In this document: piece by piece, positions 1,462 through 63,496 of the stretch
Layout of the letters: each line of letters opens with the position of its first letter
Numbering within the stretch: the first letter of the stretch is position 1
Source of the DNA: Ferruginibacter sp.
GTDB lineage: Bacteria; Bacteroidota; Bacteroidia; Chitinophagales; Chitinophagaceae
Reading direction: 5' to 3'
DNA: 64,000 nucleotides
NCBI GenBank assembly: GCA_019638575.1
Contig: JAHBTN010000007.1
Location: 62,001 to 126,000 of the forward strand
The notes under the pieces: model-generated
The model's input: the letters and a program-made list of their open reading frames with translations, nothing else
What the model was told of the DNA's origin: nothing
Database searches by the model: none
Program-made: the position numbers and the translations under genes

Positions 1462-1523
1462 TTCTAAATCATTTTACTACTTACTTATTAACAATGGAAT
1501 ATTCACAAAGATACTAAAACCCC

Positions 1524-1573
1524 AAGCTGCCCCGCCATTTTACGAACTCTGTTACTATGTTGCGGGGCAGCTT
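1524..1573. repeat. Long inverted repeat, 12-bp arms
   Basis: aagctgccccgc (1524-1535) and gcggggcagctt (1562-1573) are perfect reverse complements with a 26-base loop. On the plus strand the right arm runs into ttttt, so it would work as a plus-strand terminator, although no plus-strand gene lies just upstream. On the minus strand it sits between the DUF932 and HNH genes. Confidence 0.55.
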
Positions 1574-1584
1574 TTTTAGCATTA

Positions 1585-1612
1585 AAAAGGGGTATTTGCC
1601 GATACCCCTTTT
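1585..1612 (-). terminator. Intrinsic terminator after the DUF932 gene
   Basis: An 11-bp perfect stem (aaaaggggtat / atacccctttt) with a six-base loop begins nine bases after the DUF932 stop; on the minus strand the descending arm ends in a T run. This is a good rho-independent terminator for the ssb-DUF932 transcript. Confidence 0.75.
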
Positions 1613-1620
1613 AATAACAC

Positions 1621-2655
1621 TCAATTATAAATCCCTGCCATTTCATCTTTCGCAAAATCATCGCAAAGCTGAAAGGCTTTTTGAGTTCTTAACTGCGCTG
1701 TACCTCCATACAAGGTGGATTTAATTTTTGCTTCGTCGTCTTTATAATTCCTTACGTTTTGAAAATATCCGGTGATGGCATTGTAAGCACCAAATACCGT
1801 CCCTTTTGTAGTTTCTGTTTGTTGTGTTGGACTGGTATAGCTATATTCCAAAACAGAATCACAGATATTATTAAAGCAGGTTGAAAGCTCATCCTGTTCT
1901 CCATTCTCAATATTCTGCAATACTTCTTTATTTGGAACCATTGCCAGTTGAACCAGTTTTTTTACTTCCTTATCGGTAATACGAACTTTTGCCCATTGAT
2001 TAAATATCCCTTCTAATTGCTGTGAAAGCTGGTTGCTGATGCCCATTACTTTATGGGCTTCTTCCAGCCGTTCTTTTGCATTGGCAGTGTGGCGGATTTT
2101 AATGCAATTGCTATGGTTTTTAAGGGCTGCATTTAAAGTATTGTTGCAAACAATTCTTATAGGAGTAAATGCCGCCATTATGCTACCGAAACCATCGTGG
2201 GAGGTTGTAAGGAATAAATACTTTTCAATTAAATCATCATTGCCCACTTTTATATAGTCAGGCAGCTTGGCTGTTATAAAGATTTTCTCACCGTTTCCCA
2301 AAGCCCCGGCGGTTTCATATTGTATGCCATCACCGCCCACAATCGCATCAAAGAAACTAAAGGCATCTGAATTTTGTACCACTTCGTAATCTTTGCCTAA
2401 ACGGTCGCCTAATATGGCGTTGGTATCCGGCCTGTAAGTATAAAATGAGTTTTTTGAAATGATTTCCAAATCATCATTCAGCCTGTGAATATTCGGTCTT
2501 TTCAATACTTCAAAGTCAAGCCCTGCAAATTGCAACGCTTCTTTGCTGGTGGGATAGTCCTGTACAATCTGTCCCAATCCATGCCATGCTTTTTCTTTTA
2601 CGCTAAAGAAACTGTGTTTGCCTGTCTGTTCGTTAAAATTGATATTGTGTGCCAT
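1621..2655 (-). CDS. DUF932 phage/plasmid-like protein
   Basis: The 344-residue product opens with a region typical of the TIGR03299 phage/plasmid-like DUF932 family (MAHNINFNEQTGKHSFFSVK, then the AWHGLGQ motif at about 24-30), and the whole length fits the family. The biochemical role of DUF932 is not established; the proteins are found on phages, plasmids and integrative elements, often beside DNA-replication genes. Here it follows a single-stranded DNA-binding protein gene by 67 bp on the same strand and is followed by a strong terminator, so the two probably form a short operon. This pair is the best evidence that the left end of the window belongs to a mobile element. Confidence 0.85.
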   Translation of the reverse strand: MAHNINFNEQTGKHSFFSVKEKAWHGLGQIVQDYPTSKEALQFAGLDFEVLKRPNIHRLNDDLEIISKNSFYTYRPDTNAILGDRLGKDYEVVQNSDAFSFFDAIVGGDGIQYETAGALGNGEKIFITAKLPDYIKVGNDDLIEKYLFLTTSHDGFGSIMAAFTPIRIVCNNTLNAALKNHSNCIKIRHTANAKERLEEAHKVMGISNQLSQQLEGIFNQWAKVRITDKEVKKLVQLAMVPNKEVLQNIENGEQDELSTCFNNICDSVLEYSYTSPTQQTETTKGTVFGAYNAITGYFQNVRNYKDDEAKIKSTLYGGTAQLRTQKAFQLCDDFAKDEMAGIYN

Positions 2656-2722
2656 AGTTGTAAAATTTAGAATTGAATAAAAAAAGCAGCATCACATATT
2701 TGCATGATGCTGCCGTAAAGTT

Positions 2723-3115
2723 TTAAAATGGTAAATCTTCTCCTGTTTCAGCCATTGCTGTGGGAGCAATAACAACCGGAGCAGTTGTATTGCCGTTGCC
2801 TGCTTTATTACCTCCATGCAGTTTAATATTATTTACATGAAAAGTAAGTGTGGCTTTTGCTACGCCATCTTTACCAGTCCAGGCATTTACACCAATGCGT
2901 CCTGCACATTCCACCAAACTTCCTTTAGTTAAGTAGGCTGCAATGCCTGCATTAATCCAGTAAGCACAGTTTACATAGGTAGTAATTTTCTGTACTTCGT
3001 TGCTGTCTTTTGTTTTGTAAGTGTCATTAATAGCAAGGGAAAAGTTCACCACTTTTTTCCCTGCTTTGGTTTCGCTAACGGCTGCATCTGCCGTAATTCT
3101 GCCGATGATTTCCAT
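2723..3115 (-). CDS. ssb: Single-stranded DNA-binding protein
   Basis: The 130-residue protein has one OB fold: an N-terminal MEIIGRITADAAV strand, the KVVNFSLAINDTYK core, and the WINAGIAAYLTKGSLVECAGRI segment that ends the fold near residue 80. A low-complexity linker follows, then the acidic tail GEDLPF, the hallmark SSB tip that recruits replication and repair partners. It is short compared with chromosomal SSB proteins of Bacteroidota and sits beside a DUF932 gene, which suggests a copy carried by a mobile element rather than the housekeeping gene. Confidence 0.9.
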   Translation of the reverse strand: MEIIGRITADAAVSETKAGKKVVNFSLAINDTYKTKDSNEVQKITTYVNCAYWINAGIAAYLTKGSLVECAGRIGVNAWTGKDGVAKATLTFHVNNIKLHGGNKAGNGNTTAPVVIAPTAMAETGEDLPF

Positions 3116-3435
3116 ACCTGTAAATTTTAAATGTTTAAAAAATGATTCTTAAATAAATTCAGCTTCGCTTCATTCATTTACCGATAGCGACCAGTCATTA
3201 GGACTGTGGAGGAGGAACAAGGTTTTTCAAATAAAATACTACCCAGTGGAGGATTATTTATTAATATCAGGTGGAGATTTTTTTGAAAACCCGTGGCGAT
3301 TGACGGCTCTTTTTACTGTGGGACTAAGACCTTGTTCCGCACAGAACAGGCCAATAATTTTGCGGCACGGTTAGTTGAATGACCAGCTAAAGTATTTTAA
3401 CTAATTTTGAAAGGTATAAAATCATCATTTTGAAT
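3116..3435. other. Gene-free region upstream of ssb with inverted repeats
   Basis: About 320 bp without a credible gene. ggaacaaggt (3214-3223) and accttgttcc (3329-3338) are perfect inverted repeats about 105 bp apart, and between and around them several GTGGAGG/GTGGAGA/GTGGCGA-like units recur. A small inverted repeat tgttc...gaaca follows at about 3334-3349. It may be the ssb leader, a structured RNA or a DNA-processing site of the element; nothing identifies it firmly. Confidence 0.4.
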
Positions 3436-4176
3436 ATGCCTGAAATTGAAATTAAGGAAGAAAAACTTTCCGGTGGAGTCTTAGTTATCGGATCACTTAT
3501 CTGGGAAAAGTCTGAGGTAAGAAATGCCTGGCGGCGTGAATCATTGGATTTAAAGCAGCACCAACTTATATCGTTACCCATTAGATATGGTAGAATTTCT
3601 TCAACAAGAAATTGTACTTATACTATGGTCTTCTCCAGCGAGTGTACGGTACAGGAAAATTTGGGTACTGGTGTTTTCATTCCTTTCTCAATAAACCCGA
3701 TTGAGTTTAAGCAGTTGGAAATTCAGGCTAAACGTATGATTAATGCAGAATTCAATAAGGTCAAAAATTTAGAATTTCTGGATTGGGATTGGGGAGCAAT
3801 GGGCATATCTATCAATCCGCTTGCCGTAGCTAAGGATTCTTTAAAATCCCCTTTAGTTGATCTGTTCCTTAAAAATTGGTCAAAAAAATATTCAAAATCA
3901 TTCAACCCTGATGATTATAAAGTGGGTGAAGAAAAGCAAATTATTTCCGAGCAAGGCATCCTCTTAATTGATTGGCCTAATCTCCCTGAAAATATTGATT
4001 TCGTAATAGCCACTGTTATAAAACCCCAATTAAAGAACTACCCTTCTGCAAAGAATATCGCAGACAGAATGCTGGTAAATGAGTATGATGAGTATTTTAA
4101 GGAAAACAGAAAGGAAGGAATTTCAACATTTCAAGATTCAGAAATTAAACAACTACTTAATAAGGGATTAACATAA
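3436..4176 (+). CDS. Hypothetical protein, weak gamma-glutamylcyclotransferase resemblance
   Basis: The frame is open from a TTG at 3430, but the first ATG is at 3436 and is the more likely start, giving about 246 residues. Near the N terminus GGVLVIGSLIWE is followed by RNAWRRESLDL and IRYGRISSTRNCTYTMVFS. A Y/I-GSL-W loop followed by an R-W-R segment and a conserved arginine-rich strand is reminiscent of the gamma-glutamylcyclotransferase (ChaC/GGCT) fold, but I see no clear catalytic glutamate, so this is only a hint. It is the only plus-strand gene in the first 50 kb apart from the receptor end, and it stands alone between two non-coding stretches. Confidence 0.55.
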   Translation: MPEIEIKEEKLSGGVLVIGSLIWEKSEVRNAWRRESLDLKQHQLISLPIRYGRISSTRNCTYTMVFSSECTVQENLGTGVFIPFSINPIEFKQLEIQAKRMINAEFNKVKNLEFLDWDWGAMGISINPLAVAKDSLKSPLVDLFLKNWSKKYSKSFNPDDYKVGEEKQIISEQGILLIDWPNLPENIDFVIATVIKPQLKNYPSAKNIADRMLVNEYDEYFKENRKEGISTFQDSEIKQLLNKGLT

Positions 4177-4235
4177 CATTATCTGGAATTGTGTTTGGTG
4201 AGGTACGAAGCAATCTCAATTCCCAATATTCTAAT

Positions 4236-4302: not shown

Positions 4303-4631
4303 GTCTTTAAAAATTTCTTGTATTATTCTAAAAGATTATTTTATCAATCTGTTTAAATTTAAAGTAATCAAAGTATGCTGCTTTGTAGTGGATGACTGAG
4401 GGCAGCAGTTGTTGTAATAAGCCAGCCAGGTTAGCGGCTATGTGCCAACCTTGTGTGATGGGTTCTTGGTGTTTGGTAAGGTTGCCATGGCGGCGTTGTG
4501 TGCCAGCGGGGCGCATGGAAACAATGTATCTGCAAGGAAGAAAGCAGCGAAAAAGCTGCATACACAATATATCATTGCAGCACCTCTTCCGAAAGTATGA
4601 AGGAAGTGGTGCGGTTTATTTATGCCCAAGT
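4303..4631. other. GC-richer gene-free stretch downstream of jetD
   Basis: About 330 bp between the inverted repeat and the jetD stop. Several short frames overlap here on both strands, none with a coding look. From about 4385 to 4580 the sequence is clearly richer in G than its surroundings (for example ggcggcgttgtgtgccagcg), unlike the AT-rich genes around it. It may be an interspersed repeat or a decayed insertion. I see no RNA gene that I recognise. Confidence 0.4.
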
Positions 4632-5765
4632 CTATTGTGACAGTTGTTTTTGAACATATTCCTGAGAAATTCTCTCCTGTTCAAGCCTTTTATTATTCTG
4701 TAGCAAAAATTGATACATTTTTTGTTCTTCGGAAGAAAGTAACGGAAGACTCTTTTTCTTACCGGCGTTGTTTACTGAAAACTGTTCAAACAGTTTATAG
4801 GTTTTTTCATCCATTAAAAAACTTGCTGCATCCGGATAATGTTCCCTTATCATATTCAGCATTTCAAATCCGGCTGTATCCAAATCAAACCAACAAAATA
4901 AATTGGTTTGGTTAAGCCAGGGAATATCTTTACTGATCCTGCTTTTAAAGCCCTCCCCAAAAATGGCGACTGAATTTTTAACTTTAGGAAAAGTGAGAAA
5001 GCAAATCTGGTTTTCTATTATAAAAACGTTTTTGGGTACCCAGTCGAGCCATGCGGCATCTTCCAGTGTAAGTGAACATTCATCATACCCCAAATGTGGT
5101 TTCAGTTCTTCGTCCAAAATCCGTATTTGGGTATAGGTACTTACTCTCCGTAAGAAATATCTTTCCGAAAAATCATTGGAAGTAATATTTTTCCATTCAT
5201 CAGGCACCAGTATGTCAAGTAATTTTTTAAGCAGGCTTTTATTTTGTTCAATAAACTTAGAATGTACTTCTATTGGCAAATCCCGGACGTAATAAGCATG
5301 AGGAGGAGGATTTGAAGAAAAATAGCTGCACACTTTGATAATATCTGTCCACCGTTCAAAATTATCTAATAAGATTTCCGGATTATTATCTGCCCATTCT
5401 TTTAAAGCCGGAAAATTTTTAATCAATAAGCTCTCAGCTGCGATTATTTTTTGAAACTCAGTTTCTTTATTAATAAAATGTATAAAGTCATCCAGTGAAT
5501 CAAAATAAATCTTTGTAGGAACGGTCTGCCGGGTTCCATTGATATTCCTGTCTTTCCAATCAACAGAATAGCCTCTTTTTTTAACAGCTTTTGAATTTTG
5601 CATTAACGGGACAAGATCAGTTTTCAGGTCGCTATAATTGCTGCCGGTAACCTGCTTATTGCTTGGCATTACCAACGGAAAAATGTTTTCACCTTTCAGG
5701 TGGGATGAAACTACTTTGAAAAATATTTTATCCGCTTTTGCCAGTAATTCTTTAGGAGTTATCAT
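4632..5765 (-). CDS. jetD: Wadjet protein JetD, Toprim-like plasmid nuclease
   Basis: The 377-residue protein matches JetD of type I Wadjet (DUF3322 followed by DUF2220). The C-terminal half contains IFGEGFKSRI near residue 270 and WFDLDTAGFEML near residues 290-300; the glutamate and the D-x-D are the expected metal ligands of the Toprim-like catalytic site. In characterised Wadjet systems JetD cuts small circular DNA once the JetABC SMC-like motor has extruded it. The start overlaps the jetC stop by 4 bp (ATGA), so translation is coupled. It is the last gene of the operon. Confidence 0.9.
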   Translation of the reverse strand: MITPKELLAKADKIFFKVVSSHLKGENIFPLVMPSNKQVTGSNYSDLKTDLVPLMQNSKAVKKRGYSVDWKDRNINGTRQTVPTKIYFDSLDDFIHFINKETEFQKIIAAESLLIKNFPALKEWADNNPEILLDNFERWTDIIKVCSYFSSNPPPHAYYVRDLPIEVHSKFIEQNKSLLKKLLDILVPDEWKNITSNDFSERYFLRRVSTYTQIRILDEELKPHLGYDECSLTLEDAAWLDWVPKNVFIIENQICFLTFPKVKNSVAIFGEGFKSRISKDIPWLNQTNLFCWFDLDTAGFEMLNMIREHYPDAASFLMDEKTYKLFEQFSVNNAGKKKSLPLLSSEEQKMYQFLLQNNKRLEQERISQEYVQKQLSQ

Positions 5766-8700
5766 TCTGTATTTTCTGCTAATTGTTTAAACTCTTCCTT
5801 CCGTTCATAGTACTCATCCATTGTAAGATTGTACACAATAGAGTTTTTCTTGTTCTTGATTTCAACAAAGTGTACCGCATTAATATATGGTTCAGCAATA
5901 TTAATTTTATCCAGCGGTGTTACCACCAGAATCTGCAGATTTAACTGGGCACAAAACTCCATCAGGAACTGGCTCTTCTCGGGGTCAAGTTTGCTAAAAG
6001 CTTCATCAACTGTAATAAACCGAAGGCTTTTGTACTGCTTACCGGCCTGATAAATTCCAAACTGATGGGCAATAGCTGCCCCCAATATGGAATAAGTAAA
6101 CTGAGCTTTTTGGCCGCCGGAATAGCTGGCGGTGTTATCATGGTACTGTCCCTGCTTTCCATCAACAACAGAATATTCCCTTGCACTGAAAGTAAGCCAG
6201 TTTCTTATATCGGTTACCTTTCTACGCCATGCTTCCTCATTTTGCAGTTCTGTAATCAGTTCCTTAATTCTTCGGAATACTTCATTCCGGTAGGTTTCAT
6301 CCTTTTGTGTGGCAAATTCTATTGTATTGGGAATGGTTGCACTTAACTGTTCCTTGAATAATTTTATTTCCTGTTCTTTTGTTGTTCTGCATTCTAACTG
6401 CAAAAAAGTGTCGGGGTTCTTGTTGAAAGTTATTTTTTTAAGAGGTACATTCAATTCTTCAATCACTTCTTTTATCTTATCTTCTTCATTCGACAGCCAT
6501 GTCCTGTAATTGGTAAGGGCATCCAGCATACTTTTATCCATATAGTCCCTGAACCGCCGCTTGTGTTCCACCAGACGTTGATTGCGGATTGTATTGTACA
6601 AATCTTCCAGTTCATTAAGACTGGCGAGGCTGGCGCTTATATTCATCACATCACCACTCCAATCCGCAAACTCCCTCAATATTCTTTCATTTGGGTTAAC
6701 AAAAGCATTTATTAAAGTATTTGTTTCCAGTTCAAGATTTTTAGTTTCAGTGTTTGCACTGGTAAGCCTGGATTTTAAGGCAACAAACAATTCTTTTCGT
6801 AAGGCATCTAACCCGTTCAAATTTTCAGGATCGGTGATCTTAATTTTTTCACTATTTGTAAATGTTTTGATTGCGCTGATTCCTTCTTCAGTCAGTTCAT
6901 CAAAAAACATATTTAGTTTTTTAATGTTCTTCTGATGACACTCCTCATCAAGTTTGCTGAGTTTGCCTATATATCCTTCTTTGACCTTTCTTCTTTTTTC
7001 CAATTCCTTTTCAACAGTTTCCAACTGCAATGTTATGGCCTTATATTTATCAGAGGAACTTTTAAGTTGTTCAATCTGTTTATTTATGGATACAATTTTT
7101 TCAGCATGTGCCTGCCAGTTTATATCATTAAACGATTTCCTCTCAGTAAATAATGTAAGTAATGGTTTTTTGTCTTCAATAACTTTTATCTTAGGATTTA
7201 TCTCCTGAAGCTTTACAAACAGGGCATCGTGTTCCTTTTGTAATGTATATTTTTCCTGCTGAAGTAGCTCGATAGTTTGTTTGTTATCCCATCCCAGGGT
7301 ATATTTTAATTTTCCCCATTTATTTGGCCTGTCGTCCTTTTCATGACGGCTGTTATTTCTGATCAGTCCGTTGGATGTCAGGGCCTTTTTTGAACCGTAA
7401 AATACTTCCAGATTATCCGTACAATGATAATCAAACCGTTCAACCAGTTGATGCTCCAGCCATTTACCATAGAAGGCAGACTCCTTAATATCAATTTTGT
7501 TAACAAGAGAGTCATCATCATTGGGCCAGCGCAAAATTGATTCAGTTTGTCTCCGGTCAATTCGTTGGTAAACCAATTTTGCATGCAAGTTATTGCTGTG
7601 TACAAAAAGATTTACCTGTTTATTATATTTCTCGGGTACCAGCAACTGCATAGAAAAACTATGCAACACTCTTTCTATAACATCTTCCCAATGCAAAGAA
7701 TCTTCTTTCACTTTTATTAATTCACCCGCAAATGGAAGTTCATCTTCCCCGGTTTCAAGTAAATCCAACAGCCTTTTTCTTACAGCAATCAATTCCTGTG
7801 GAATCCGGTTTTTCCTGCTTAACAGTGAAGTTATGCTGTCCTGTACCTGGTCTATTTGTTTGGAAATATTATCCTTATCGTTTTTATAACCGAACCTTTC
7901 TTCCATCAGTGCATCGTATTCTGTTCCCACCGAGATTTGCAACTGTTCAGCTTTCTTAAGATTTTCTTTGAAAGAGGAATCGTTAATATCAGTCTGTAAA
8001 CCGAACTTTTCTGCTACCTTAACATAATCAGTATAAAAATTCTTTTTGTTATCCCTGTCTTTTGTCTCGGCAGTTATATCTTTATTTAACAGTTGAATCC
8101 GGGCATCAATATTTAACTGCGCCTTTTGAGAAATCAATTGTTTCTGTTCTTCTTCACTTTGTTTAATTTGTGCATCTACAATTTTCTTCTCTCTTTTGAT
8201 GTCTTCTACCTCTTTTTCAATTGCCTGGATATTGGCATCCAGCAGGTCATACTCTATTTTGTCAAGAAAAAAAGGTAACTGGTCCTGCACAAAATTTAAT
8301 ATAGAAAGGTTAGCGTTCAGCAGGACAAGTTTACTCTTGTTGTCAACTACAGGCTCCAATAACTCAAGCTGTTTCTCATCTTTCTGTATGGCTTTATGGC
8401 TTATTAATAAATCATTGTAATGGTCGTATAAACTTTTAAATTGTTCTTCAGCTTCAGGTTCCTCCAGCATTTGATGCCTTATAAACTGAGTCAGGTCGCC
8501 CAATACTTTTATACCAACTGTTTGGTTAAAAAGCGATAATGCTTTTTCTTTTAACCCGAATAAATCACTGAACCTTGCAGCGTATTCTTTGAAACTATCG
8601 AATAAATCCGCTTTGGGGAACTGATTTTTAAGCCGCTTTTTCCAATCGCCTTTTACATCAAAATGCCCTTTACCAAAATTATCGTTTATGTTTAATTGAT

Positions 8701-9160
8701 AAGGAGCTACAATAAAGATTTTCTTCAACCCACCTCCGCTGTACCAACGCACCTGTACTAAAGTGATGGTGTGTAATGTACCTGCGTTTTGAAAACATGC
8801 TAAAAGAACAGAATACGGATTGTCGGACTTATTCCTTAGTTGTTCGGTCTTTGATTTCTCGTCCAGTTCAGAAAATATTTTTCCAAAATATCCCCAGAAA
8901 TATGAATTTTCATCTCTTTCCTTTTTTATCTCAGCACCTGAGGATTGATTGTAAAATCTTTTATTGGTAGGTACAAGCAGTGTCAACAATGCATCAATTA
9001 AAGTGGTTTTACCACTTCCGTTTGCCCCTGTAAGCAATGATGTCTTTCCGTTCGTATTCAGCCTGTACACCTTGCCATGAAATGTACCCCAATTGAATAC
9101 CTCCATGTATCGCAGCCTGTGCCCGCCTTCGGAATTGTTATTATTAAATAGTGTTGACAT
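5762..9160 (-). CDS. jetC: Wadjet protein JetC, SMC/MukB-like ATPase
   Basis: This 1132-residue protein is an SMC-type ATPase. Walker A GANGSGKT is at residues 45-52, long heptad-rich coiled coils occupy roughly 290-490 and 660-960 with a hinge-like globular part between, the ABC signature SYSGGQKAQ is near 1011, and Walker B FITVDEAFSKLD is near 1048. Length and architecture fit COG4913/JetC. In Wadjet it forms the loop-extruding motor with JetA and JetB that measures DNA circles and licenses JetD to cleave. It overlaps jetB by 17 bp and jetD by 4 bp. Confidence 0.95.
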   Translation of the reverse strand: MSTLFNNNNSEGGHRLRYMEVFNWGTFHGKVYRLNTNGKTSLLTGANGSGKTTLIDALLTLLVPTNKRFYNQSSGAEIKKERDENSYFWGYFGKIFSELDEKSKTEQLRNKSDNPYSVLLACFQNAGTLHTITLVQVRWYSGGGLKKIFIVAPYQLNINDNFGKGHFDVKGDWKKRLKNQFPKADLFDSFKEYAARFSDLFGLKEKALSLFNQTVGIKVLGDLTQFIRHQMLEEPEAEEQFKSLYDHYNDLLISHKAIQKDEKQLELLEPVVDNKSKLVLLNANLSILNFVQDQLPFFLDKIEYDLLDANIQAIEKEVEDIKREKKIVDAQIKQSEEEQKQLISQKAQLNIDARIQLLNKDITAETKDRDNKKNFYTDYVKVAEKFGLQTDINDSSFKENLKKAEQLQISVGTEYDALMEERFGYKNDKDNISKQIDQVQDSITSLLSRKNRIPQELIAVRKRLLDLLETGEDELPFAGELIKVKEDSLHWEDVIERVLHSFSMQLLVPEKYNKQVNLFVHSNNLHAKLVYQRIDRRQTESILRWPNDDDSLVNKIDIKESAFYGKWLEHQLVERFDYHCTDNLEVFYGSKKALTSNGLIRNNSRHEKDDRPNKWGKLKYTLGWDNKQTIELLQQEKYTLQKEHDALFVKLQEINPKIKVIEDKKPLLTLFTERKSFNDINWQAHAEKIVSINKQIEQLKSSSDKYKAITLQLETVEKELEKRRKVKEGYIGKLSKLDEECHQKNIKKLNMFFDELTEEGISAIKTFTNSEKIKITDPENLNGLDALRKELFVALKSRLTSANTETKNLELETNTLINAFVNPNERILREFADWSGDVMNISASLASLNELEDLYNTIRNQRLVEHKRRFRDYMDKSMLDALTNYRTWLSNEEDKIKEVIEELNVPLKKITFNKNPDTFLQLECRTTKEQEIKLFKEQLSATIPNTIEFATQKDETYRNEVFRRIKELITELQNEEAWRRKVTDIRNWLTFSAREYSVVDGKQGQYHDNTASYSGGQKAQFTYSILGAAIAHQFGIYQAGKQYKSLRFITVDEAFSKLDPEKSQFLMEFCAQLNLQILVVTPLDKINIAEPYINAVHFVEIKNKKNSIVYNLTMDEYYERKEEFKQLAENTE

Positions 9161-9749
9161 AGGTTTCTAACTTGTTCTTAATTTGCTCCAGTGTATCATT
9201 ATTGACTAACGCTTTTATAATTCGCTTTACTTCATATTGATTGTTATCCTTATTAACCGGATCTTCACGGGTAAGTTTTAAAATACCGATGTTTTGTAAA
9301 CTGTTTATCGGTTTGGCCAACTCACGCCAAAGCTTGCTTCTATTGGTTTGCTCTTTATAAAAAAATTCAATCCGTTCCTTAATTTCCTTTTGGGTAAGGA
9401 ATAATTTAGTACCCTCACTTTTAATATCAAATTCTTCCAGCATCTCTCTGAGTATTACGCAAAGCAGAGTGGTTTCATAATTCATCGTTTGCTTACGCAT
9501 TAATCTCGGCAAGGGGTTGTCGTCATTCTCGTCACTTTCAGGTTGCAGAATTCTTGCAAACCCGTCCACTTCATTTATTAATAACTCAATACCAATTTTA
9601 CCGAAATAATCCTGTATTGCAGATTGCCATGCCTGTAAGTCACGCCAAACATTTTTTTCCTCTGCATACACCGGGCCCTGTAATAATTTTATTATCACAT
9701 GGGCATAAATGGCTCTTGATATATTTTCTTCCATTTTAAAATCAGTCAT
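9144..9749 (-). CDS. jetB: Wadjet protein JetB, MukE-like (DUF4194)
   Basis: The 201-residue protein carries the DUF4194 pattern: LLQGPVYAEEKNVWRDLQAW near residues 22-41, then YFGKIGIELLINEVDGFARI, followed by the ETTLLCVILREMLEEF helix and a winged-helix-like part. This is the MukE-like kleisin partner of Wadjet complexes. It overlaps jetA by 8 bp upstream and jetC by 17 bp downstream, as expected for subunits made in fixed proportion. Confidence 0.92.
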   Translation of the reverse strand: MTDFKMEENISRAIYAHVIIKLLQGPVYAEEKNVWRDLQAWQSAIQDYFGKIGIELLINEVDGFARILQPESDENDDNPLPRLMRKQTMNYETTLLCVILREMLEEFDIKSEGTKLFLTQKEIKERIEFFYKEQTNRSKLWRELAKPINSLQNIGILKLTREDPVNKDNNQYEVKRIIKALVNNDTLEQIKNKLETYVNTI

Positions 9750-11208
9750 TGGGTTTTGTGTATATAATCATCGGAACATTTACCTTTCTCTGGTCAATCC
9801 AGATAGGGTCGGGTGTTTCCTCCAAAATAATATGATGATTGCTGCTGCTTGCTATAGAAAAGTAACCTACCAATTCGCTTAACCCGTTTTCCAATCCATA
9901 GTTATCAGTTATCTCCTTTAATGTCACCTGTGTCTTGCCCTCAAGCATCATATCAATCCGTTGTATCAGTTTCTTTTTATCTATTGTAAATTGGTCAAAA
10001 AGTGATTTGAAATCAACATCGTCAGATATAGCTCCTCCAATACCATCCGGGAAAAGTATTTCCAATGAATCTTCTTTGCCATCATTTAGTTCCCACCTGT
10101 CTATCAGATTTAGGTAAGGCTCATCTTCAATAACAAGAAAATCATCTTCTTTTAGCCTGGTCTCAGCCAGGTTGTAAGCCATCTTCCTTATTTCACCAAT
10201 GAGTTCAATTGCTCTCCGCCTTTCCAGCATATTTTTTTCCGAAAGAACCCGGCTTATCTTTTCACTGAGCTTACGGTTGGCGTCAATCACTTTTTTACCG
10301 GAAGCATGCAGGTATCTCTTTAAGTTCTTTAGAAACCTGTCATTCCCGTAATCAATATCCCTCGCTTTTAAAAGCTGATATAATTGGTCTGTAAGCTGAC
10401 TAAACTCCTGCTGTTTCTTTTCATCCATCAGGAACTCCCAAAATGCTTTAAAACTCTTTCCCTGATCCTTACCTTCAATTTCATCCAGGGCATCTAAAGC
10501 ATATACAAGCAAAGAACCTTTTGCAATATCCTTTTCGGCATATTTCCGTTGAATATCTTTTCGAATCTGTTCAAAATTTTGTTCCACTTCGGTAAAGTCG
10601 CTTAACAATTCCCTGGCAATTTTATTCAGATCATAAAACCTTTCTTTTATTTCTGTATCATCAAAGATCACCGGGTTTTTACCCTTCTCCAATAAATTAA
10701 TTTCATTTTCTATTTCCCATTTTTTCTTTTTCAGTTCCTGAATTCTCAATTCCTTATTCTCTGAGCTTTGTTCAATCATTTCCTGTAGTTTAAAGAATAT
10801 ATCTTTAAAGCGGCTGTTTGTCCCAACAAACTCTCTTTGTTGCAGGTCATCAATCCATTTCATTACTTTTTGTGTATCACTGGTAAGTTCATGTAAGTCT
10901 TCACCCTCATCATTAGGGTACTTTCTCAAAAAACCTTCATTGCTCCATTTATCAATATACTGGGCGGCTTTAAGGGAGTGATCGTCAAATAGTGAACTGG
11001 CATCCAGTTCCTCGTCCTTTTCTTCGTATTCCCAATCTTCCATATAACCTTCAAGTTTGTTCCTGAGTTCGGTATTGGTAATAGTGGTAAGATGTGCTTC
11101 CTTAAATACCTTATAAAAAAAAGATAGTATAAAAGGAGCATTCTTGCGCCTTAAAAGAATTAGGGGCTTTGCTGTTTTAAATTGAAGTGATAGTTCGTCA
11201 AATGTCAT
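9742..11208 (-). CDS. jetA: Wadjet protein JetA, MukF-like kleisin (DUF3375)
   Basis: The 488-residue protein begins with the DUF3375 signature (LILLRRKNAPFILSFFYKVF at about 16-35, an N-terminal winged helix), continues with charged coiled-coil segments between about 150 and 240, and ends in a basic, beta-rich winged helix with HIILEETPDPIWIDQRKV. In Wadjet JetA is the MukF-like kleisin that bridges the JetC heads. It is the first gene of jetABCD; 64 bp separate it from the stop of the ApeA-like gene upstream, with no terminator visible, so read-through from the upstream trio is likely. Confidence 0.92.
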   Translation of the reverse strand: MTFDELSLQFKTAKPLILLRRKNAPFILSFFYKVFKEAHLTTITNTELRNKLEGYMEDWEYEEKDEELDASSLFDDHSLKAAQYIDKWSNEGFLRKYPNDEGEDLHELTSDTQKVMKWIDDLQQREFVGTNSRFKDIFFKLQEMIEQSSENKELRIQELKKKKWEIENEINLLEKGKNPVIFDDTEIKERFYDLNKIARELLSDFTEVEQNFEQIRKDIQRKYAEKDIAKGSLLVYALDALDEIEGKDQGKSFKAFWEFLMDEKKQQEFSQLTDQLYQLLKARDIDYGNDRFLKNLKRYLHASGKKVIDANRKLSEKISRVLSEKNMLERRRAIELIGEIRKMAYNLAETRLKEDDFLVIEDEPYLNLIDRWELNDGKEDSLEILFPDGIGGAISDDVDFKSLFDQFTIDKKKLIQRIDMMLEGKTQVTLKEITDNYGLENGLSELVGYFSIASSSNHHIILEETPDPIWIDQRKVNVPMIIYTKPND

Positions 11209-11272
11209 TATCCTGAGATCTTACTTTTAAAATTAATGCAATTGCCGAAAATGAAAGAAGAAGTACTTTACT

Positions 11273-12754
11273 TTATTCTTCTCCTGCTCTTTTTGTGATA
11301 TGTTTCAACGGGCAATTGACAACGCTGTAATCTATATAATAGTCATCGTAACCTAATAATTTTAATAGTACCCTGTTAAATAAAACTTCATACACCCTGG
11401 TTAAAATAAGGTCGTCATAAGCCGTGTCATCATCCGAATAATTCCTTGAACTGTGAGCCATTTTATTTCTAAGATTTATAGCCGCTTTCTCAGCTTTCCC
11501 AACTTCAATGCCCAAAAGTGAAAAGAAGAAGGTTATTTTTTCGCTGGGCACTTTCTGGTTAGCACCTTTTATTTTATTAATCATGGCATTGCCTCCATTC
11601 AATGGCGCCAATTTATTTGTCAATGTCTCTAATTCTTCTTTAATCAGGTTTAAATATTCATTCTGAGGAATGTTTTCCATTTTAAATTTACCGGTATGCT
11701 TTAAATATTTAGCTGCTAATATTTCTATTGCATTTGCCAAAACCGGAAGGTTTGAACCAACCGGGATACTTTTTGCAATCCAATAGCGGGATAACACCTG
11801 GTTCAAACTCAATATCCCCTCCAGTTTTAAATAGACGGGCAGCAAATTATTCATCAGCCATGCAAAATTGCCCCAATCATACTGCCGGTTGAATTTAATT
11901 GGGGGCATTGAATTCCTGTTACCCTTAACGTTAACCTTGTTACTAACAGAATGTAAAATGACTTCTTTAATTTCATTGCCAGCTAAAATACTGGAACCAA
12001 TATAAGTTAATCTGTTACCCAACAGAAATGACACAAGATTATTTATGCAGTTTAGGGTTTTATAATGTGGAATTTCCGGTAATGAGGAACGAAACTCAAA
12101 GCAAATTCCTTTAATTCCATCGGGAGTAAAGTATTCAGGCACCTCGGCGATAATACATGATACTCCCGTTATGCCAACTTCAATATAGTCCCTGGATAAA
12201 GAACCACCAGTATAATTTTCGATAGAGTCATCGTATTCATCCAATCCTGCACGGAATTTTTTGCCGTGCAGTTGTAAATTTCTAAAAGTCGTTTTATCAA
12301 AATCGGCATTAATATCTGAACATAAAAACCAATCATATCTTTTAAACCTCTTGCTTTCTGTTACGTCTGTGAAATTTATTTTTATATTGCTTAATATAAG
12401 CTGGGCTTCAAAAAAATATCTATTATCCTTTACATGCCAGGAGTCAGTATGATGCCCGGTTAAAATACAATCGGAAAGTTTTATACCATTGCCATTCACT
12501 TCAACACCTGTAATGGTATCTCCCTGGATAATATTACCCTTTCCTACAAAAATATCATTGTCTAAACTTATCGGAGTATCTGTATATCCCGAAACCTTTC
12601 CCTGCAACTGGTAGTCATTATTTCGCCAGATTGTTATAATGGTATCTTCCTTAAATCCATAATGCAGCCTTTCGAATTTAATCTGGCTAATTGTTATCGG
12701 GAAGTTGATTGCTTCCCACTCAAGATGGGGTACATAGTAATTATTGTCCTTCAT
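11273..12754 (-). CDS. ApeA-like HEPN protein, probable abortive-infection RNase
   Basis: The 493-residue protein has a beta-rich N-terminal half of about 300 residues (many short I/V-rich strands, e.g. SGYTDTPISLDNDIF) and a helical C-terminal domain. The latter contains NLRNKMAHSSRNYSDDD near residues 428-445, the R-N-x-x-x-H motif of HEPN RNases, followed by a VLFNRVLLKLLGYDDYYIDY helix. This order, with the C-terminal HEPN after a sandwich-like region, is that of ApeA-type anti-phage proteins. In that family the HEPN domain cleaves RNA on infection and the N-terminal part is thought to sense or restrain. It is 64 bp downstream of the ADP-ribosyltransferase-like gene and 64 bp upstream of jetA. 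Confidence 0.7.
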   Translation of the reverse strand: MKDNNYYVPHLEWEAINFPITISQIKFERLHYGFKEDTIITIWRNNDYQLQGKVSGYTDTPISLDNDIFVGKGNIIQGDTITGVEVNGNGIKLSDCILTGHHTDSWHVKDNRYFFEAQLILSNIKINFTDVTESKRFKRYDWFLCSDINADFDKTTFRNLQLHGKKFRAGLDEYDDSIENYTGGSLSRDYIEVGITGVSCIIAEVPEYFTPDGIKGICFEFRSSLPEIPHYKTLNCINNLVSFLLGNRLTYIGSSILAGNEIKEVILHSVSNKVNVKGNRNSMPPIKFNRQYDWGNFAWLMNNLLPVYLKLEGILSLNQVLSRYWIAKSIPVGSNLPVLANAIEILAAKYLKHTGKFKMENIPQNEYLNLIKEELETLTNKLAPLNGGNAMINKIKGANQKVPSEKITFFFSLLGIEVGKAEKAAINLRNKMAHSSRNYSDDDTAYDDLILTRVYEVLFNRVLLKLLGYDDYYIDYSVVNCPLKHITKRAGEE

Positions 12755-12818
12755 TTTTGGATTAAAATTGATTTCCCTTTTTCAGACCTTACTCAAGATA
12801 CAGGAATGTTTGAAGATA

Positions 12819-13460
12819 TTATCGCTGTAAATATTTCTTATAGCTGATACAGGCTCCATCTAATATTGCAGAATACTCTACCTGGCCTGAATTAAAAAGT
12901 ACAGGTGTTGCCGGTAATACCAGCCATTCATTATCTCTTAGCGCATTTTTTAGAGAAGCCGCATATTTATCATTATTGGATAAAGTAAAAACCTTCACCA
13001 CATCAATCAAAATAATCCGGTACGCTTCAGTGAGCATGGCAAACTTTGTGAGTGAGGGAGTATAGAAACCTTCAAATACCCCAGGTTCAATTTCGTCCCA
13101 ATTAACTTTATCACTATGCAGCGTAATTATAGCAAAACCGAAATCAGCCATATCTTCCGGATATTCTGCCTGCTGTTGAACTATATCTTCTGTTATTGTC
13201 TCACTTGTACCAATTCCATAACGAAAAGCAGTAAAGAGGTTGTCGCTAAAAGAAAGGAAATGTGTGTGCCGCCAATTGATACCTATGTGCCTGTTAATTA
13301 ACTGCTGTAAAGGCACTTCATTTATTAATCTGCCTTCGCCTCCGTTAATGAGGTTGGTTTGTAACTGTCCAAAATGGATAGTCTCTTTTAGTTTCCTTGC
13401 ACCATGTTTATCAGCATCTCCACGATATAGTTCCGATGGTATCTTAAAGGCAGTATTCAT
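12819..13460 (-). CDS. Putative ADP-ribosyltransferase-fold protein
   Basis: I do not recognise this 213-residue protein as a named family, but three segments follow the R-S-E layout of arginine-type ADP-ribosyltransferases: LYRGD with R13 on the first strand, HFLSFSDNLFTAFRYG at residues 67-82 in the place of the STS motif, and NEWLVLP with E178 in the place of the catalytic glutamate strand. Heat-labile-toxin-like enzymes show the same spacing of an initial YR-D, an STS followed by an alanine helix, and a late glutamate. No secretion signal is present, so it would act in the cytoplasm. It begins 10 bp after the stop of the AbiU2-like gene, which suggests a functional pair. Modification of a host or phage target is inferred only. 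Confidence 0.5.
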   Translation of the reverse strand: MNTAFKIPSELYRGDADKHGARKLKETIHFGQLQTNLINGGEGRLINEVPLQQLINRHIGINWRHTHFLSFSDNLFTAFRYGIGTSETITEDIVQQQAEYPEDMADFGFAIITLHSDKVNWDEIEPGVFEGFYTPSLTKFAMLTEAYRIILIDVVKVFTLSNNDKYAASLKNALRDNEWLVLPATPVLFNSGQVEYSAILDGACISYKKYLQR

Positions 13461-13470
13461 AAGGCATTTT

Positions 13471-14124
13471 TCAATCTTTGAATTCGCCTTCTATCCCGTG
13501 CTCCTTTGCCAGTTTTCTCCACGGCTTTTCCCTTCGCTTCTTTTCATCGGCTAAAACATTTACAATATACTCCAGATTTTGTACCGGGGCATTTATAGGA
13601 TCGTTTACTAAAAAAGAAGTTTCGAAAACTGTAAAATATATTTCTCTTATTATTTTCTGAACCACTTCAATTAATTCCGTTGTTTTCTTTAAGGTTACGG
13701 TATTCACAACAGCTTTGCTGTTTCTGTCTTTATGGGCATAAATTTTATTTCTTTGTAAAATCAGGTTATCTATAACGTCTTTTTCATTTTCCAAATCGGT
13801 TTCCCATTGATTAATCAATCCGGGAGATATGCCTGCATCTCCAAAATGGCCATTGGCCTTCAATTTTGAGATAAATTTATGTAGCCTGTAATCTTCATTT
13901 TCTCTTGTTGAAAATAATTTGCACAATTCAATTACAATAACCCGCCAGTAAATGCTGGTGGTATAAACAAAGAAAGCATTGACTCGTTTTGTGTAAGCCC
14001 TATCGTCATCATCTTCCTCCTTGATAAGAAACCGAACCACTTTCAAAGACTCCTGTGCTAAAAAGAGAATTTCGCTGATTTCCTCTACTTCCTCTTTTAA
14101 TTCTGTTTTATTTTTTTCTTTCAT
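13471..14124 (-). CDS. AbiU2-like HEPN protein
   Basis: The 217-residue all-helical protein has the shape of HEPN proteins of the AbiU2 group: an EEISEILFLAQESL helix, a RVNAFFVYTTSIYWRVIVIE helix, and ILQRNKIYAHKDRN at about residues 122-135, an R-x5-H catalytic motif of the HEPN superfamily. A lysine-rich tail follows. HEPN proteins of this kind are RNases or their inactive partners in abortive infection and toxin-antitoxin systems. It is the first gene of a run of seven on the minus strand and follows a TAnnTTTG box by 18 bp. With the next gene only 10 bp away, it may be the restraining partner or the second effector of the ADP-ribosyltransferase-like protein. Confidence 0.65.
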   Translation of the reverse strand: MKEKNKTELKEEVEEISEILFLAQESLKVVRFLIKEEDDDDRAYTKRVNAFFVYTTSIYWRVIVIELCKLFSTRENEDYRLHKFISKLKANGHFGDAGISPGLINQWETDLENEKDVIDNLILQRNKIYAHKDRNSKAVVNTVTLKKTTELIEVVQKIIREIYFTVFETSFLVNDPINAPVQNLEYIVNVLADEKKRREKPWRKLAKEHGIEGEFKD

Positions 14125-14142: not shown

Positions 14143-14150
14143 CAAAAATA
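14143..14150 (-). promoter_or_regulatory. Bacteroidota -7 promoter box for the defence operon
   Basis: On the minus strand this reads TATTTTTG, an exact TAnnTTTG match, 18 bp before the ATG of the AbiU2-like gene. A clear TTG at the -33 position is not seen at 19-21 bp spacing, so only the -7 element is supported. Confidence 0.45.
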
Positions 14151-60842: not shown

Positions 60843-62822
60843 ATGTATTCGATATATTTGAAAGTGAATAAATATTATTTTATAAATAATAAAAAGGAGT
60901 GGCAGGGGCCTTATTGGCTCCCACAAATTTTGTTTTACACTTTAAAAGGTAGCATAAAACCTCATACCTATCTTTGGCACAATAAGCTTGTTAACGATAG
61001 CAGTGAACACCCATCCCAGTGCATTTATGCCAGAAAAAAAGCCTTCGAATTTTTGCCATTCTGGGTATTCAGTTCCAATTTAAAAATAATAGGTATCAAT
61101 TTAATTAACCGTATAAAGAAAGGCATAAGGAAAAAGGATAGCTGGGAAAAAATGATACGAACTCCCATCGAAACACCATCTATACTTAAAGATGCTTCTC
61201 CAATCTATTTAGTTCCTTCAATAACGGCAATACATGATTTTGCCGGAACCGGAGAGTACAAGGTAAAATTGATCTATAAAGACACCCAAACTGATGACAT
61301 AAAATCAACAGAGTTTCCTATAGAATTGTTCAGAGATAAGAGGCCGGGCATTTCTTTTGAAGTAACAATGAAAGAACCTCCGCAAATTGGCGGTGTGCTT
61401 CATAAAGAATCTTACGGATTACATCACCCATTATTTCTGAAAAGTAAAATTGAAAATATAGCCGTAGAAAAAAACTGTGTCTTCGATTTTTCAACACGTT
61501 TCCCTTATAAACCTCAGATTTTAAAAGGCAGGTTCAGCCAGGCTAATTTAATTGTGCCTTCGGAATATAAGAACAGCTACAACAGACTTATGTTAAAAAC
61601 AGAAGATGATAAATTATTAGGTCCGCTGGATTTGATTGAACGTTCCGGTTCACATCTTTTTGATTATGAAGAATTCAATGTTCATCCTTCGCTTATGGGT
61701 ATGTCATTTAGAACTGGTGGCGGCCACGTGGAAATTGAGTTAGATAAAAAACGTTACCGTTTTTTTGAAGTGGCAGACTCCTTATATTTAATTGATGGAC
61801 TTGACCTGGAAGACCTGGAAATATTTAAACAAAAAGCTGAAACAATAAGGATAGCACTGGCTATTATATCCGGAAAGTTTTACGGAGGAGAGTGCAATTA
61901 TATTACTTCACCCACATCGAATTTTACAGACATTGAGGGCGTTTGGTATGAGATTGAACGGGGGGCTGTGTTATCAAATCGCCGTGTTATTGATTTACAG
62001 TTTTTTCGCACCACCTTTAAGGAAAAAGATAAAGATTATGAGACCAGGTATAGGCCAATTGACAAACCAGTAGATCCTGCGTTGTTTTCTAATTTATGTA
62101 ATGCTCTTTGGAGCAATGAAAATCTACTTCATGCTGCGGAGCTAGTAATAAGTGGCATGGGCCATAGTGATCCTGTGCAACAGGGTGCTTTATATTCTGT
62201 TGCTTTAGAAACACTTACTTCAACGCTTGGAGATACTAGTGCAACCGATTTAAAACCTGTGAATGATGAAGTTGTATTCAAAAGTTTAAAGGATGACTTT
62301 ATAAATGTTTTGAAAAATTATGAGGCGGGTATCTCAAAAGAAGCCCACACAATTTTGCAAAGAAAAATCGAATCGCTAAATACAGTTCCAAACCAAGAAA
62401 AGTTGGTGAACACATTTGGACTATTTGGCATCAGCGTGACCGATGAAGATAAAGAGGCGATAAAAAACAGGAATAAATATTTACATGGCCGCAGCCCGTT
62501 AAAGCGTAGTCTTAAGTTTGAACTTACGCAAATTTCCCAAAGACTACACACCTTAATTGTAGCCTTATTATTAAAATCTGTTGGTTATTCAGGCCATATC
62601 ATCAATTTGGATGTATATGCGTACCTAAATAACGAAGATAAACTCTTTGAAATAATCTCCGAGCAAGGAAATATTTTGAATAAACTAATTGGAGAAATGC
62701 AAAAAGCCGGAAAAGATCAAGATGAAGTAAACTTTAATAAAGCTAAGGAGAAGATAACAAATTATCTGGACAAACATAAATTATCAGATGTGATACGAAT
62801 TATTGGTAATGTCTCAGGTTGA
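60843..62822 (+). CDS. GYF_2-like / HEPN protein, probable RNA-targeting effector
   Basis: The 659-residue protein has an N-terminal GYF_2-like domain (YYFINNKKEWQGPYWLPQIL, IKPHTYLWHNKLVND at about 12-55), a long beta-rich middle (about 110-350), and a helical C-terminal part with AIKNRNKYLHGRSPLKRS near residues 540-558, an R-N-x-x-x-H HEPN motif, then LHTLIVALLLKSVGYSGHII. The last 60 residues are a Lys-rich coil. The sandwich-plus-HEPN order is like ApeA and like the gene at 11273 (VLFNRVLLKLLGYDDYYIDY), so both may belong to a wider HEPN defence family. It is convergent with the Abi gene, ending 12 bp before its stop. Confidence 0.6.
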   Translation: MYSIYLKVNKYYFINNKKEWQGPYWLPQILFYTLKGSIKPHTYLWHNKLVNDSSEHPSQCIYARKKAFEFLPFWVFSSNLKIIGINLINRIKKGIRKKDSWEKMIRTPIETPSILKDASPIYLVPSITAIHDFAGTGEYKVKLIYKDTQTDDIKSTEFPIELFRDKRPGISFEVTMKEPPQIGGVLHKESYGLHHPLFLKSKIENIAVEKNCVFDFSTRFPYKPQILKGRFSQANLIVPSEYKNSYNRLMLKTEDDKLLGPLDLIERSGSHLFDYEEFNVHPSLMGMSFRTGGGHVEIELDKKRYRFFEVADSLYLIDGLDLEDLEIFKQKAETIRIALAIISGKFYGGECNYITSPTSNFTDIEGVWYEIERGAVLSNRRVIDLQFFRTTFKEKDKDYETRYRPIDKPVDPALFSNLCNALWSNENLLHAAELVISGMGHSDPVQQGALYSVALETLTSTLGDTSATDLKPVNDEVVFKSLKDDFINVLKNYEAGISKEAHTILQRKIESLNTVPNQEKLVNTFGLFGISVTDEDKEAIKNRNKYLHGRSPLKRSLKFELTQISQRLHTLIVALLLKSVGYSGHIINLDVYAYLNNEDKLFEIISEQGNILNKLIGEMQKAGKDQDEVNFNKAKEKITNYLDKHKLSDVIRIIGNVSG

Positions 62823-62833
62823 AATTTGTTCAA

Positions 62834-63496
62834 TTAAATGCCATTTATTACTGCTATAGCTTTAGGCACGCTGCCTATACCGTACAGAATTTTTATTGCA
62901 TCACACCCCATCCATCCTAATAATTCCAAAATTGTATCGTACCGTCTTTGAGTTCTTGCTGAAGATATTGCATTCACATCAAAGCAAATTGGTTCATGAT
63001 GGGCAATTCTATTTCTTATATCATTAATTCTTATTAGTTTTTTCAAAACATCTTTTTGCTTTGTGCCAAATGGACGGTTAATAAAAATATCCAATAGTGT
63101 ACTTCCTGAAGCAGCAAATTCTTTGGCAGCAAATTGATACCTCCAAAAACCTAACGTCAATTTTGCGATAAGCCTGTCATGTGTGTATTGTGCTGCGAGA
63201 CTTTGAATGGCTTCTTGAACGGAATGAAACGAGTCCTCGCAACCAGGGCTTATATCTAAATACCCACCTACATCGACCGCTTCTTCTAACCAAAATGCCC
63301 CTTTTTTTGAGATCATATGTCTATCGATGGTATTTCTCAAAATCACCTCAAAGACGCCTATTATAGCGTACATCTGTTTAGATAAGGCAATATTTGCCCT
63401 GTAGAGTTTTAATGCTCTACGTCTATTTCCGCAAGCAGCTAAGTAGCGATTAAAGCGGGGATCAGATATTGCTGTATGGAATTGTGAATTAGGCAC
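62834..63496 (-). CDS. Abi-family (AbiD/AbiF-like) HEPN protein
   Basis: The 220-residue protein has the Abi_2-type core: LKLYRANIALSKQMYAIIGV, FEVILRNTIDRHMISKKGAF and the HEPN motif RINDIRNRIAHHEPICFDV near residues 158-176, with R-N-x-x-x-H-H-E. Abi-family proteins of this kind abort phage infection. The start is GTG at 63496; an 18-bp palindrome lies 24 bp upstream. It converges on the GYF/HEPN gene and is not in its transcript. Confidence 0.75.
   Translation of the reverse strand: MPNSQFHTAISDPRFNRYLAACGNRRRALKLYRANIALSKQMYAIIGVFEVILRNTIDRHMISKKGAFWLEEAVDVGGYLDISPGCEDSFHSVQEAIQSLAAQYTHDRLIAKLTLGFWRYQFAAKEFAASGSTLLDIFINRPFGTKQKDVLKKLIRINDIRNRIAHHEPICFDVNAISSARTQRRYDTILELLGWMGCDAIKILYGIGSVPKAIAVINGI

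What the first reader, a model, noticed from the sequence alone, without database searches (positions are those of the whole stretch)
11273..14124. HEPN + ADP-ribosyltransferase-like + ApeA-like HEPN trio joined to Wadjet
Three genes with two different HEPN RNase motifs (RNKIYAH and RNKMAH) and an ADP-ribosyltransferase-like middle gene lie on the same strand as jetABCD, with gaps of 10, 64 and 64 bp and no terminator. One promoter box at 14143 could serve all seven. A plasmid-cleaving SMC complex with RNA-cleaving and target-modifying proteins in one transcript would be a layered or composite system; I know of no described case of this order.
Basis: partly seen in the sequence, partly recalled or inferred. 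Interest (0 to 1): 0.85.

Follow-up and report, generated by a model that had tools for sequence, protein, structure and literature searches.

The report
Wadjet operon with variable HEPN neighbours
On a transferable piece of DNA in a Bacteroidota bacterium, a plasmid-cutting defence system sits directly behind three further genes, two of which look like RNA-cutting defence genes; they look more like exchangeable add-ons than one new combined machine.

Summary
The three genes are intact, share the jetABCD strand and have gaps of 10, 64 and 64 bp. Gene 1 is an AbiU2-type HEPN (Pfam E 1e-10). Gene 3 is a weak ApeA-type HEPN (E 7e-4, below cut-off). The middle gene hits no curated family; its ADP-ribosyltransferase label rests on three conserved motif blocks. 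jetABCD is type I Wadjet. A terminator-like hairpin follows jetD and none was listed in the gaps, so one seven-gene transcript is plausible but unshown.

The trio is not a conserved module in what I could search. Relatives of each gene were found without the other two, and among 38 Wadjet loci only this one has the trio. The locus is cargo of a conjugative element. New here: in two same-genus genomes the same Wadjet (proteins 53-74% identical) abuts other genes: an ApeA-like HEPN starting at jetD's stop codon in one, a NERD-domain gene 10 bp after jetD in the other. I read it as a mobile Wadjet cassette with exchangeable defence neighbours. HEPN beside DNA-cutting defence is a known theme (PMC3710099, passages); with Wadjet I found none in print.

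The parts
13471..14124 (-). gene 1, AbiU2-type HEPN protein, 217 aa, RNKIYAH
   Evidence: Pfam PF18734 E 1.1e-10; motif residues invariant in 4 aligned homologues
12819..13460 (-). gene 2, 213 aa, possible R-S-E type ADP-ribosyltransferase (motif level only)
   Evidence: no curated profile hit; LYRG / LSFS / DxE blocks kept in homologues
11273..12754 (-). gene 3, ApeA-like HEPN protein, 493 aa, RNKMAH
   Evidence: Pfam PF18739 E 6.9e-4, below cut-off; R, N, H invariant in 5 aligned proteins
9742..11208 (-). jetA, 488 aa
   Evidence: PADLOC JetA1 E 5.8e-136
9144..9749 (-). jetB, 201 aa, overlaps jetA
   Evidence: PADLOC JetB1 E 1.6e-61
5762..9160 (-). jetC, 1132 aa, Walker A GANGSGKT, SGGQ, Walker B ITVDEAF
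   Evidence: PADLOC JetC1 E 0; motifs
4632..5765 (-). jetD, 377 aa, TOPRIM-type FGEG and DLDTAG
   Evidence: PADLOC JetD1 E 5.9e-124; motifs
4544..4559 (-). terminator-like hairpin behind jetD
14143..14150 (-). TATTTTTG box before gene 1; Bacteroidota promoter consensus is recalled
   Evidence: not above chance and no upstream TTTG at 14-22 bases
1517..3386 (-). backbone of the conjugative element shared with G091 and G509: ssb (2723-3115) and DUF932 gene (1621-2655)
   Evidence: 79% identical DNA in both; Pfam SSB and DUF932

Best explanation
This is a type I Wadjet cassette carried as cargo by a conjugative element, with three independent defence-type genes stacked in front of it on the same strand, probably read from one leader and ending behind jetD. 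Shown: anatomy, intact motifs, element context, and that the shared DNA of the Wadjet block stops at the jetA start codon while what flanks jetA and jetD differs between same-genus elements. Inferred: (1) Wadjet cuts small circular plasmids, as known for JetABCD; (2) the AbiU2-type and ApeA-type HEPN proteins are RNases kept silent until a phage trigger acts on them, then cut host or phage RNA and stop growth; (3) the middle gene, if an ADP-ribosyltransferase, acts as a third effector or as a modifier of a target or of a HEPN neighbour. The layers add up (plasmid removal plus phage abortion) and need no physical or regulatory link beyond shared transcription; the neighbours are exchanged between elements.
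For: Each gene's relatives occur without the other two (loci). 37 other Wadjet loci lack the trio. Same-genus G091 and G509 carry Wadjet proteins 53-74% identical with RadC 55-56 bp before jetA and, after jetD, a NERD-domain gene (10 bp; Pfam E 8.7e-5, just above cut-off) or an ApeA-like HEPN gene (0 bp). DNA similarity of the window to both ends at 11208, the jetA start. Relaxase, coupling protein and TraG-type genes lie on both sides of the window on the same contig. Literature: HEPN genes embedded in operons of DNA-targeting defence, read as back-up suicide (PMC3710099, passages).
Against: The 10 bp gap of genes 1 and 2 would suit a tighter pair. Homologues are few (2 other places for gene 2), many searched genomes were thin draws, and three contexts are cut by contig ends, so a conserved trio in unsampled genomes is not excluded. 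The ApeA-like gene beside the same-clade Wadjet in G509 hints at more than chance stacking. No expression or phenotype data.
Confidence: 0.6

Rival explanations
1. A coupled layered system: HEPN RNases are a back-up arm of Wadjet, triggered when Wadjet fails or stalls, so that a cell that cannot clear the invader stops growing.
For: Same strand, no terminator in the gaps, terminator behind jetD. In G509 an ApeA-like HEPN gene begins at the jetD stop codon, so in 2 of the 3 same-genus Wadjets of this clade that I found a HEPN gene abuts the operon. HEPN with restriction-modification, CRISPR and other systems is read this way in PMC3710099 (passages).
Against: The two ApeA-like proteins are not orthologous by best match and lie at opposite ends of the operon; the third relative has a NERD gene instead; 36 of 38 Wadjet loci show no ApeA-like gene by a five-row profile that contains the two that do.
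Confidence: 0.2
2. Genes 1 and 2 form a toxin-antitoxin-like pair in which the possible ADP-ribosyltransferase modifies the HEPN protein (or RNA), comparable to HEPN/MNT pairs; gene 3 is separate.
For: 10 bp gap. Table entries in PMC3710099 (passages) place another HEPN family (pEK499_p136) in operons with ART-like enzymes and Macro proteins.
Against: Gene 2 relatives lack gene 1 in 2 of 2 other places and gene 1 relatives lack gene 2 in 4 of 4. The ART fold is unproven.
Confidence: 0.12
3. Unrelated cargo genes that happen to face the same way and are transcribed separately.
For: The promoter box is not above chance; 64 bp gaps leave room for promoters; a weak hairpin can be drawn before jetA.
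Against: No terminator listed in the gaps and short distances.
Confidence: 0.08

Closest known systems
Type I Wadjet (JetABCD)
   Same: Four genes in order jetA-B-C-D, overlapping, best PADLOC models all type I; ATPase and TOPRIM motifs present
   Different: Three extra genes directly in front, not part of the described four-gene system
HEPN genes embedded in operons of DNA-targeting defence (HEPN with restriction-modification; PMC3710099, passages seen)
   Same: RNA-cutting HEPN genes, including the AbiU2 and ApeA families, next to a DNA-cutting defence system
   Different: Here the DNA-cutting partner is an SMC-type plasmid-restriction complex; two HEPN genes and a possible ADP-ribosyltransferase; placement not conserved
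AbiU2 (HEPN) abortive infection protein
   Same: Pfam HEPN_AbiU2 hit and motif
   Different: Neighbours differ from those tabulated for AbiU2 in PMC3710099 (Sel1-repeat gene, R-M operons)
ApeA
   Same: C-terminal HEPN domain with RNxxxH and a long N-terminal part
   Different: Below Pfam cut-off; N-terminal part not matched to the ApeA N-terminal domain; only 26% identical to the other ApeA-like protein of the window over 493 aa

Membership tests
Type I Wadjet | all four proteins of type I class | tested here: met
   PADLOC best hits JetA1, JetB1, JetC1, JetD1
Type I Wadjet | order jetA-B-C-D and intact ATPase / TOPRIM motifs | tested here: met
Type I Wadjet | restriction of circular plasmids | not testable with these tools
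   needs an experiment
AbiU2-type HEPN | profile match above curated cut-off | tested here: met
   41.8 bits against 26.8
AbiU2-type HEPN | conserved R(N)x4H motif | tested here: met
ApeA | profile match above curated cut-off | tested here: not met
   20.5 bits against 24.4; call it ApeA-like only
ApeA | ApeA N-terminal domain | tested here: not met
   Pfam scan at E up to 1 gave only the HEPN hit; two-row fold unusable, pLDDT 32
ADP-ribosyltransferase | profile match to any ART family | tested here: not met
   none at E up to 10 in Pfam for 4 sequences
ADP-ribosyltransferase | R, S-x-S and (E/Q/D)-x-E blocks in order (recalled definition) | tested here: met
   0.5% of shuffles match too
ADP-ribosyltransferase | ART fold | tested here: inconclusive
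   model pLDDT 36
Conserved HEPN-ART-ApeA module | the three genes recur together | tested here: not met
   not together in 11 other loci that hold one of them (2 + 4 + 5)
HEPN plus DNA-targeting defence operon | HEPN gene co-directional and adjacent to a DNA-targeting system | tested here: met
   also G509

The most novel reading that the evidence does not exclude
In one genus of Bacteroidota conjugative elements, Wadjet has become a platform that recruits RNase (HEPN) effectors at either end of its operon, so that one transcript carries plasmid destruction and a growth-stopping back-up arm, with effectors swapped between elements (HEPN trio, single ApeA-like HEPN, NERD protein).
Probability: 0.17. 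Interest if true: 0.7.

Novelty: new variant of a known kind. Interest (0 to 1): 0.42.

Why it matters
If the neighbours work with Wadjet, plasmid restriction would gain an abortive arm, which is known for restriction-modification and CRISPR but which I found described for Wadjet nowhere in the searches made. If they do not, the locus still shows how a conjugative element mixes anti-plasmid and anti-phage genes around one mobile Wadjet cassette, and it offers a gene (the middle one) of a family without any curated profile.

Tried and rejected
Structure of the middle gene (two-row alignment, pLDDT 36) and of gene 3 (two-row, pLDDT 32): unusable, so no fold search was run. PDB sequence searches gave nothing convincing. 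Viral contigs: 5 scans, no relative of genes 1, 2, 3 or jetA. Phages: no match for genes 2 and 3. The one genome-contig scan used two weak patterns and gave one locus, the protein already found in G049. A match to gene 3 in G447 was dropped: it covers query 40-94 only, in a 205 aa protein within a run of sugar-transferase-like genes (my reading). PHROGs gave only E 0.09 or worse. Sigma-70-type promoters: 42 found, 39 expected, so uninformative. G+C content does not set the trio apart from jetABCD (35-37% against 35-38%). A two-gene toxin-antitoxin reading and a fixed composite system were considered and rated lower, see rivals.

Limits: genome draws overlap between calls and are not to be added. 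Of the 38 Wadjet loci a jetA was called in 30; in the other 8 the front end is uncertain or cut, though every ORF of the fetched stretch was scanned. Most of the 38 are about 30% identical Wadjets of one distant genus. The ApeA-like profile holds the two loci it hits; as a check it also finds L102 and L103, which are not in it.

Full report
What is there. On the minus strand of the window lie seven intact genes: 14124-13471 (217 aa), 13460-12819 (213 aa), 12754-11273 (493 aa), then jetA, jetB, jetC, jetD to 4632. Gaps are 10, 64 and 64 bp; the jet genes overlap each other by a few bases. Gene 1 matches Pfam HEPN_AbiU2 (E 1.1e-10). Gene 3 matches HEPN_Apea only weakly (E 6.9e-4, below cut-off). 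jetA-D match PADLOC type I models, and JetC and JetD keep their ATPase and TOPRIM-type motifs.

The middle gene. No curated library names it: Pfam up to E 10 for it and three relatives' sequences, PADLOC and NCBIfam up to 1. PHROGs gave two unknown families at 0.09 and 0.25. The blocks LYRGD, THFLSFS and RDxEWLVLP are kept in its relatives, with the order R, S-x-S, D-x-E that I recall for one class of ADP-ribosyltransferases. A loose expression for this matches 96 of 20,000 shuffles and 3 of 275 medium-sized ORFs, two of them this family and one not. Its predicted fold is unusable. I treat the label as a lead.

Transcription. No minus-strand terminator-like site was listed between the genes; one lies inside jetC and one behind jetD, the latter in a well-folding stretch (z -3.3). 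The proposed promoter box exists, but boxes of that kind are fewer than chance in the window, and the upstream element is missing at the spacing tested. One transcript is plausible and unproven.

Relatives of the three genes. Gene 2: 1 of 394 other genomes in a draw from the phylum, 1 of 213 others in a draw from the family, 0 of 127 others in the family of the first hit, none in 72,556 plasmid or 50,697 phage records. Gene 1: 2 of 295 others in the phylum draw, 1 of 126 others in the family draw (partial), 1 plasmid record. Gene 3: 0 of 295 others in the phylum draw; 3 of 126 others in the family draw, one of which I dropped as spurious; 6 Leptospira plasmid records with the same region at 29% identity. 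The G509 ApeA-like protein has two further plasmid relatives. In the stretches fetched around these, profiles for the three genes found no second member of the trio in any: 2 of 2, 4 of 4 and 5 of 5 loci outside the window hold one kind only. Three of these stretches end at contig ends close to the gene (L058, L059, L069).

Wadjet neighbours. I fetched 37 further Wadjet loci, most from a distant genus with about 30% identical proteins. Profiles for the three genes hit only the window and G509. In G509 (same genus) the order is ssb, DUF932, a short opposite gene, RadC, jetABCD (73, 73, 63, 53% identical), an ApeA-like HEPN gene of 469 aa whose ATG follows the jetD stop codon directly, then mobilisation genes. 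In G091 (same genus) RadC, jetABCD (73, 73, 63, 57%), then a 567 aa NERD-domain gene 10 bp on. A third same-genus genome, G574, has no jetA match. G445 and G479 hold Wadjet and a relative of gene 3 or gene 1 on different contigs. Alignable DNA between the window and both relatives covers ssb and DUF932 and runs through the jet genes up to 11208, the jetA start codon. So the Wadjet block is a cassette, and its flanks vary.

Context. The window lies at 62001-126000 of a 153,063-base contig. About 10 kb before it are a relaxase, a coupling protein and a MobC-like gene; about 14 kb after it is a TraG-type ATPase. It is cargo of a conjugative element, probably integrative; I did not look for an integrase or ends, so a plasmid is not excluded. 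In the window's element the place between RadC and the mobilisation genes, which holds Wadjet in G091 and G509, holds an MmeI-type restriction-modification gene and a SMEK-domain gene.

How it probably works. Wadjet restricts small circular plasmids (established for JetABCD; passages). The two HEPN proteins probably act as RNases after a phage trigger, as shown for the HEPN protein Tha (PMC11087260, passages) and proposed for AbiU2 and other Abi proteins (PMC3710099, passages). The three extra genes are most likely separate solo defence genes that share a transcript with Wadjet. The case for coupling is the HEPN gene fused in position to jetD in G509; the case against is that it is not the same protein by best match, sits at the other end, and is replaced by a NERD gene in G091.

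Known or new. PMC3710099 (2013; passages seen) already describes HEPN genes of these very families in operons of restriction-modification and other systems, another HEPN family together with ART-like enzymes, and argues for coupling of attack and suicide. For Wadjet with HEPN I searched the library with Wadjet + HEPN (5 papers, passages of all 5 seen), Wadjet + accessory gene / operon / HEPN (listing), Wadjet + ADP-ribosyltransferase + operon (2 papers; passages of one for these terms) and DUF3375 + HEPN (0 papers): no such neighbourhood is described in what I saw. Subscription papers are not in that library. I call it a new variant of a known kind.

Noticed in passing
window 60843-62822 (+) and 62834-63496 (-): A second HEPN cluster: an ApeA-like protein of 659 aa (Pfam E 1.4e-4, RNKYLHG) and a convergent Abi_2-like HEPN protein (E 2.3e-4, RNRIAHH).
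   Followed up: partly
L103 (Chryseobacterium shandongense plasmid) 4819-11487: Run of same-strand genes: restriction endonuclease, a weak pEK499_p136-type HEPN, an ApeA-like protein and two Abi_2 genes: HEPN genes cluster on mobile DNA elsewhere too.
   Followed up: partly
L053 6827-8066 (G038): A relative of gene 1 lies about 60 bp before a RadC gene on the same strand, the same kind of gene that precedes jetA in G091 and G509.
   Followed up: no
window 3387-4184: About 800 bp with a plus-strand ORF (3430-4176, no usable Pfam hit) interrupts backbone DNA that is nearly continuous in G091.
   Followed up: partly
L070 11544-17275 (contig 36, 53.5-59.3 kb): MmeI-type restriction-modification gene with SMEK-domain and unknown genes in the slot where G091 and G509 carry Wadjet.
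   Followed up: partly
L079 (G509): G509 has a second Wadjet (29-35% identical to the window's) beside relaxase and coupling-protein genes and near JAB-domain and ubiquitin-like looking genes (my reading).
   Followed up: no
window about 14590-50000: Metal-handling cargo: P-type ATPases, HMA-like proteins, efflux systems (my reading).
   Followed up: no
whole locus: A conjugative element that carries Wadjet must itself pass through a circular form; whether size protects it is an open question.
   Followed up: no
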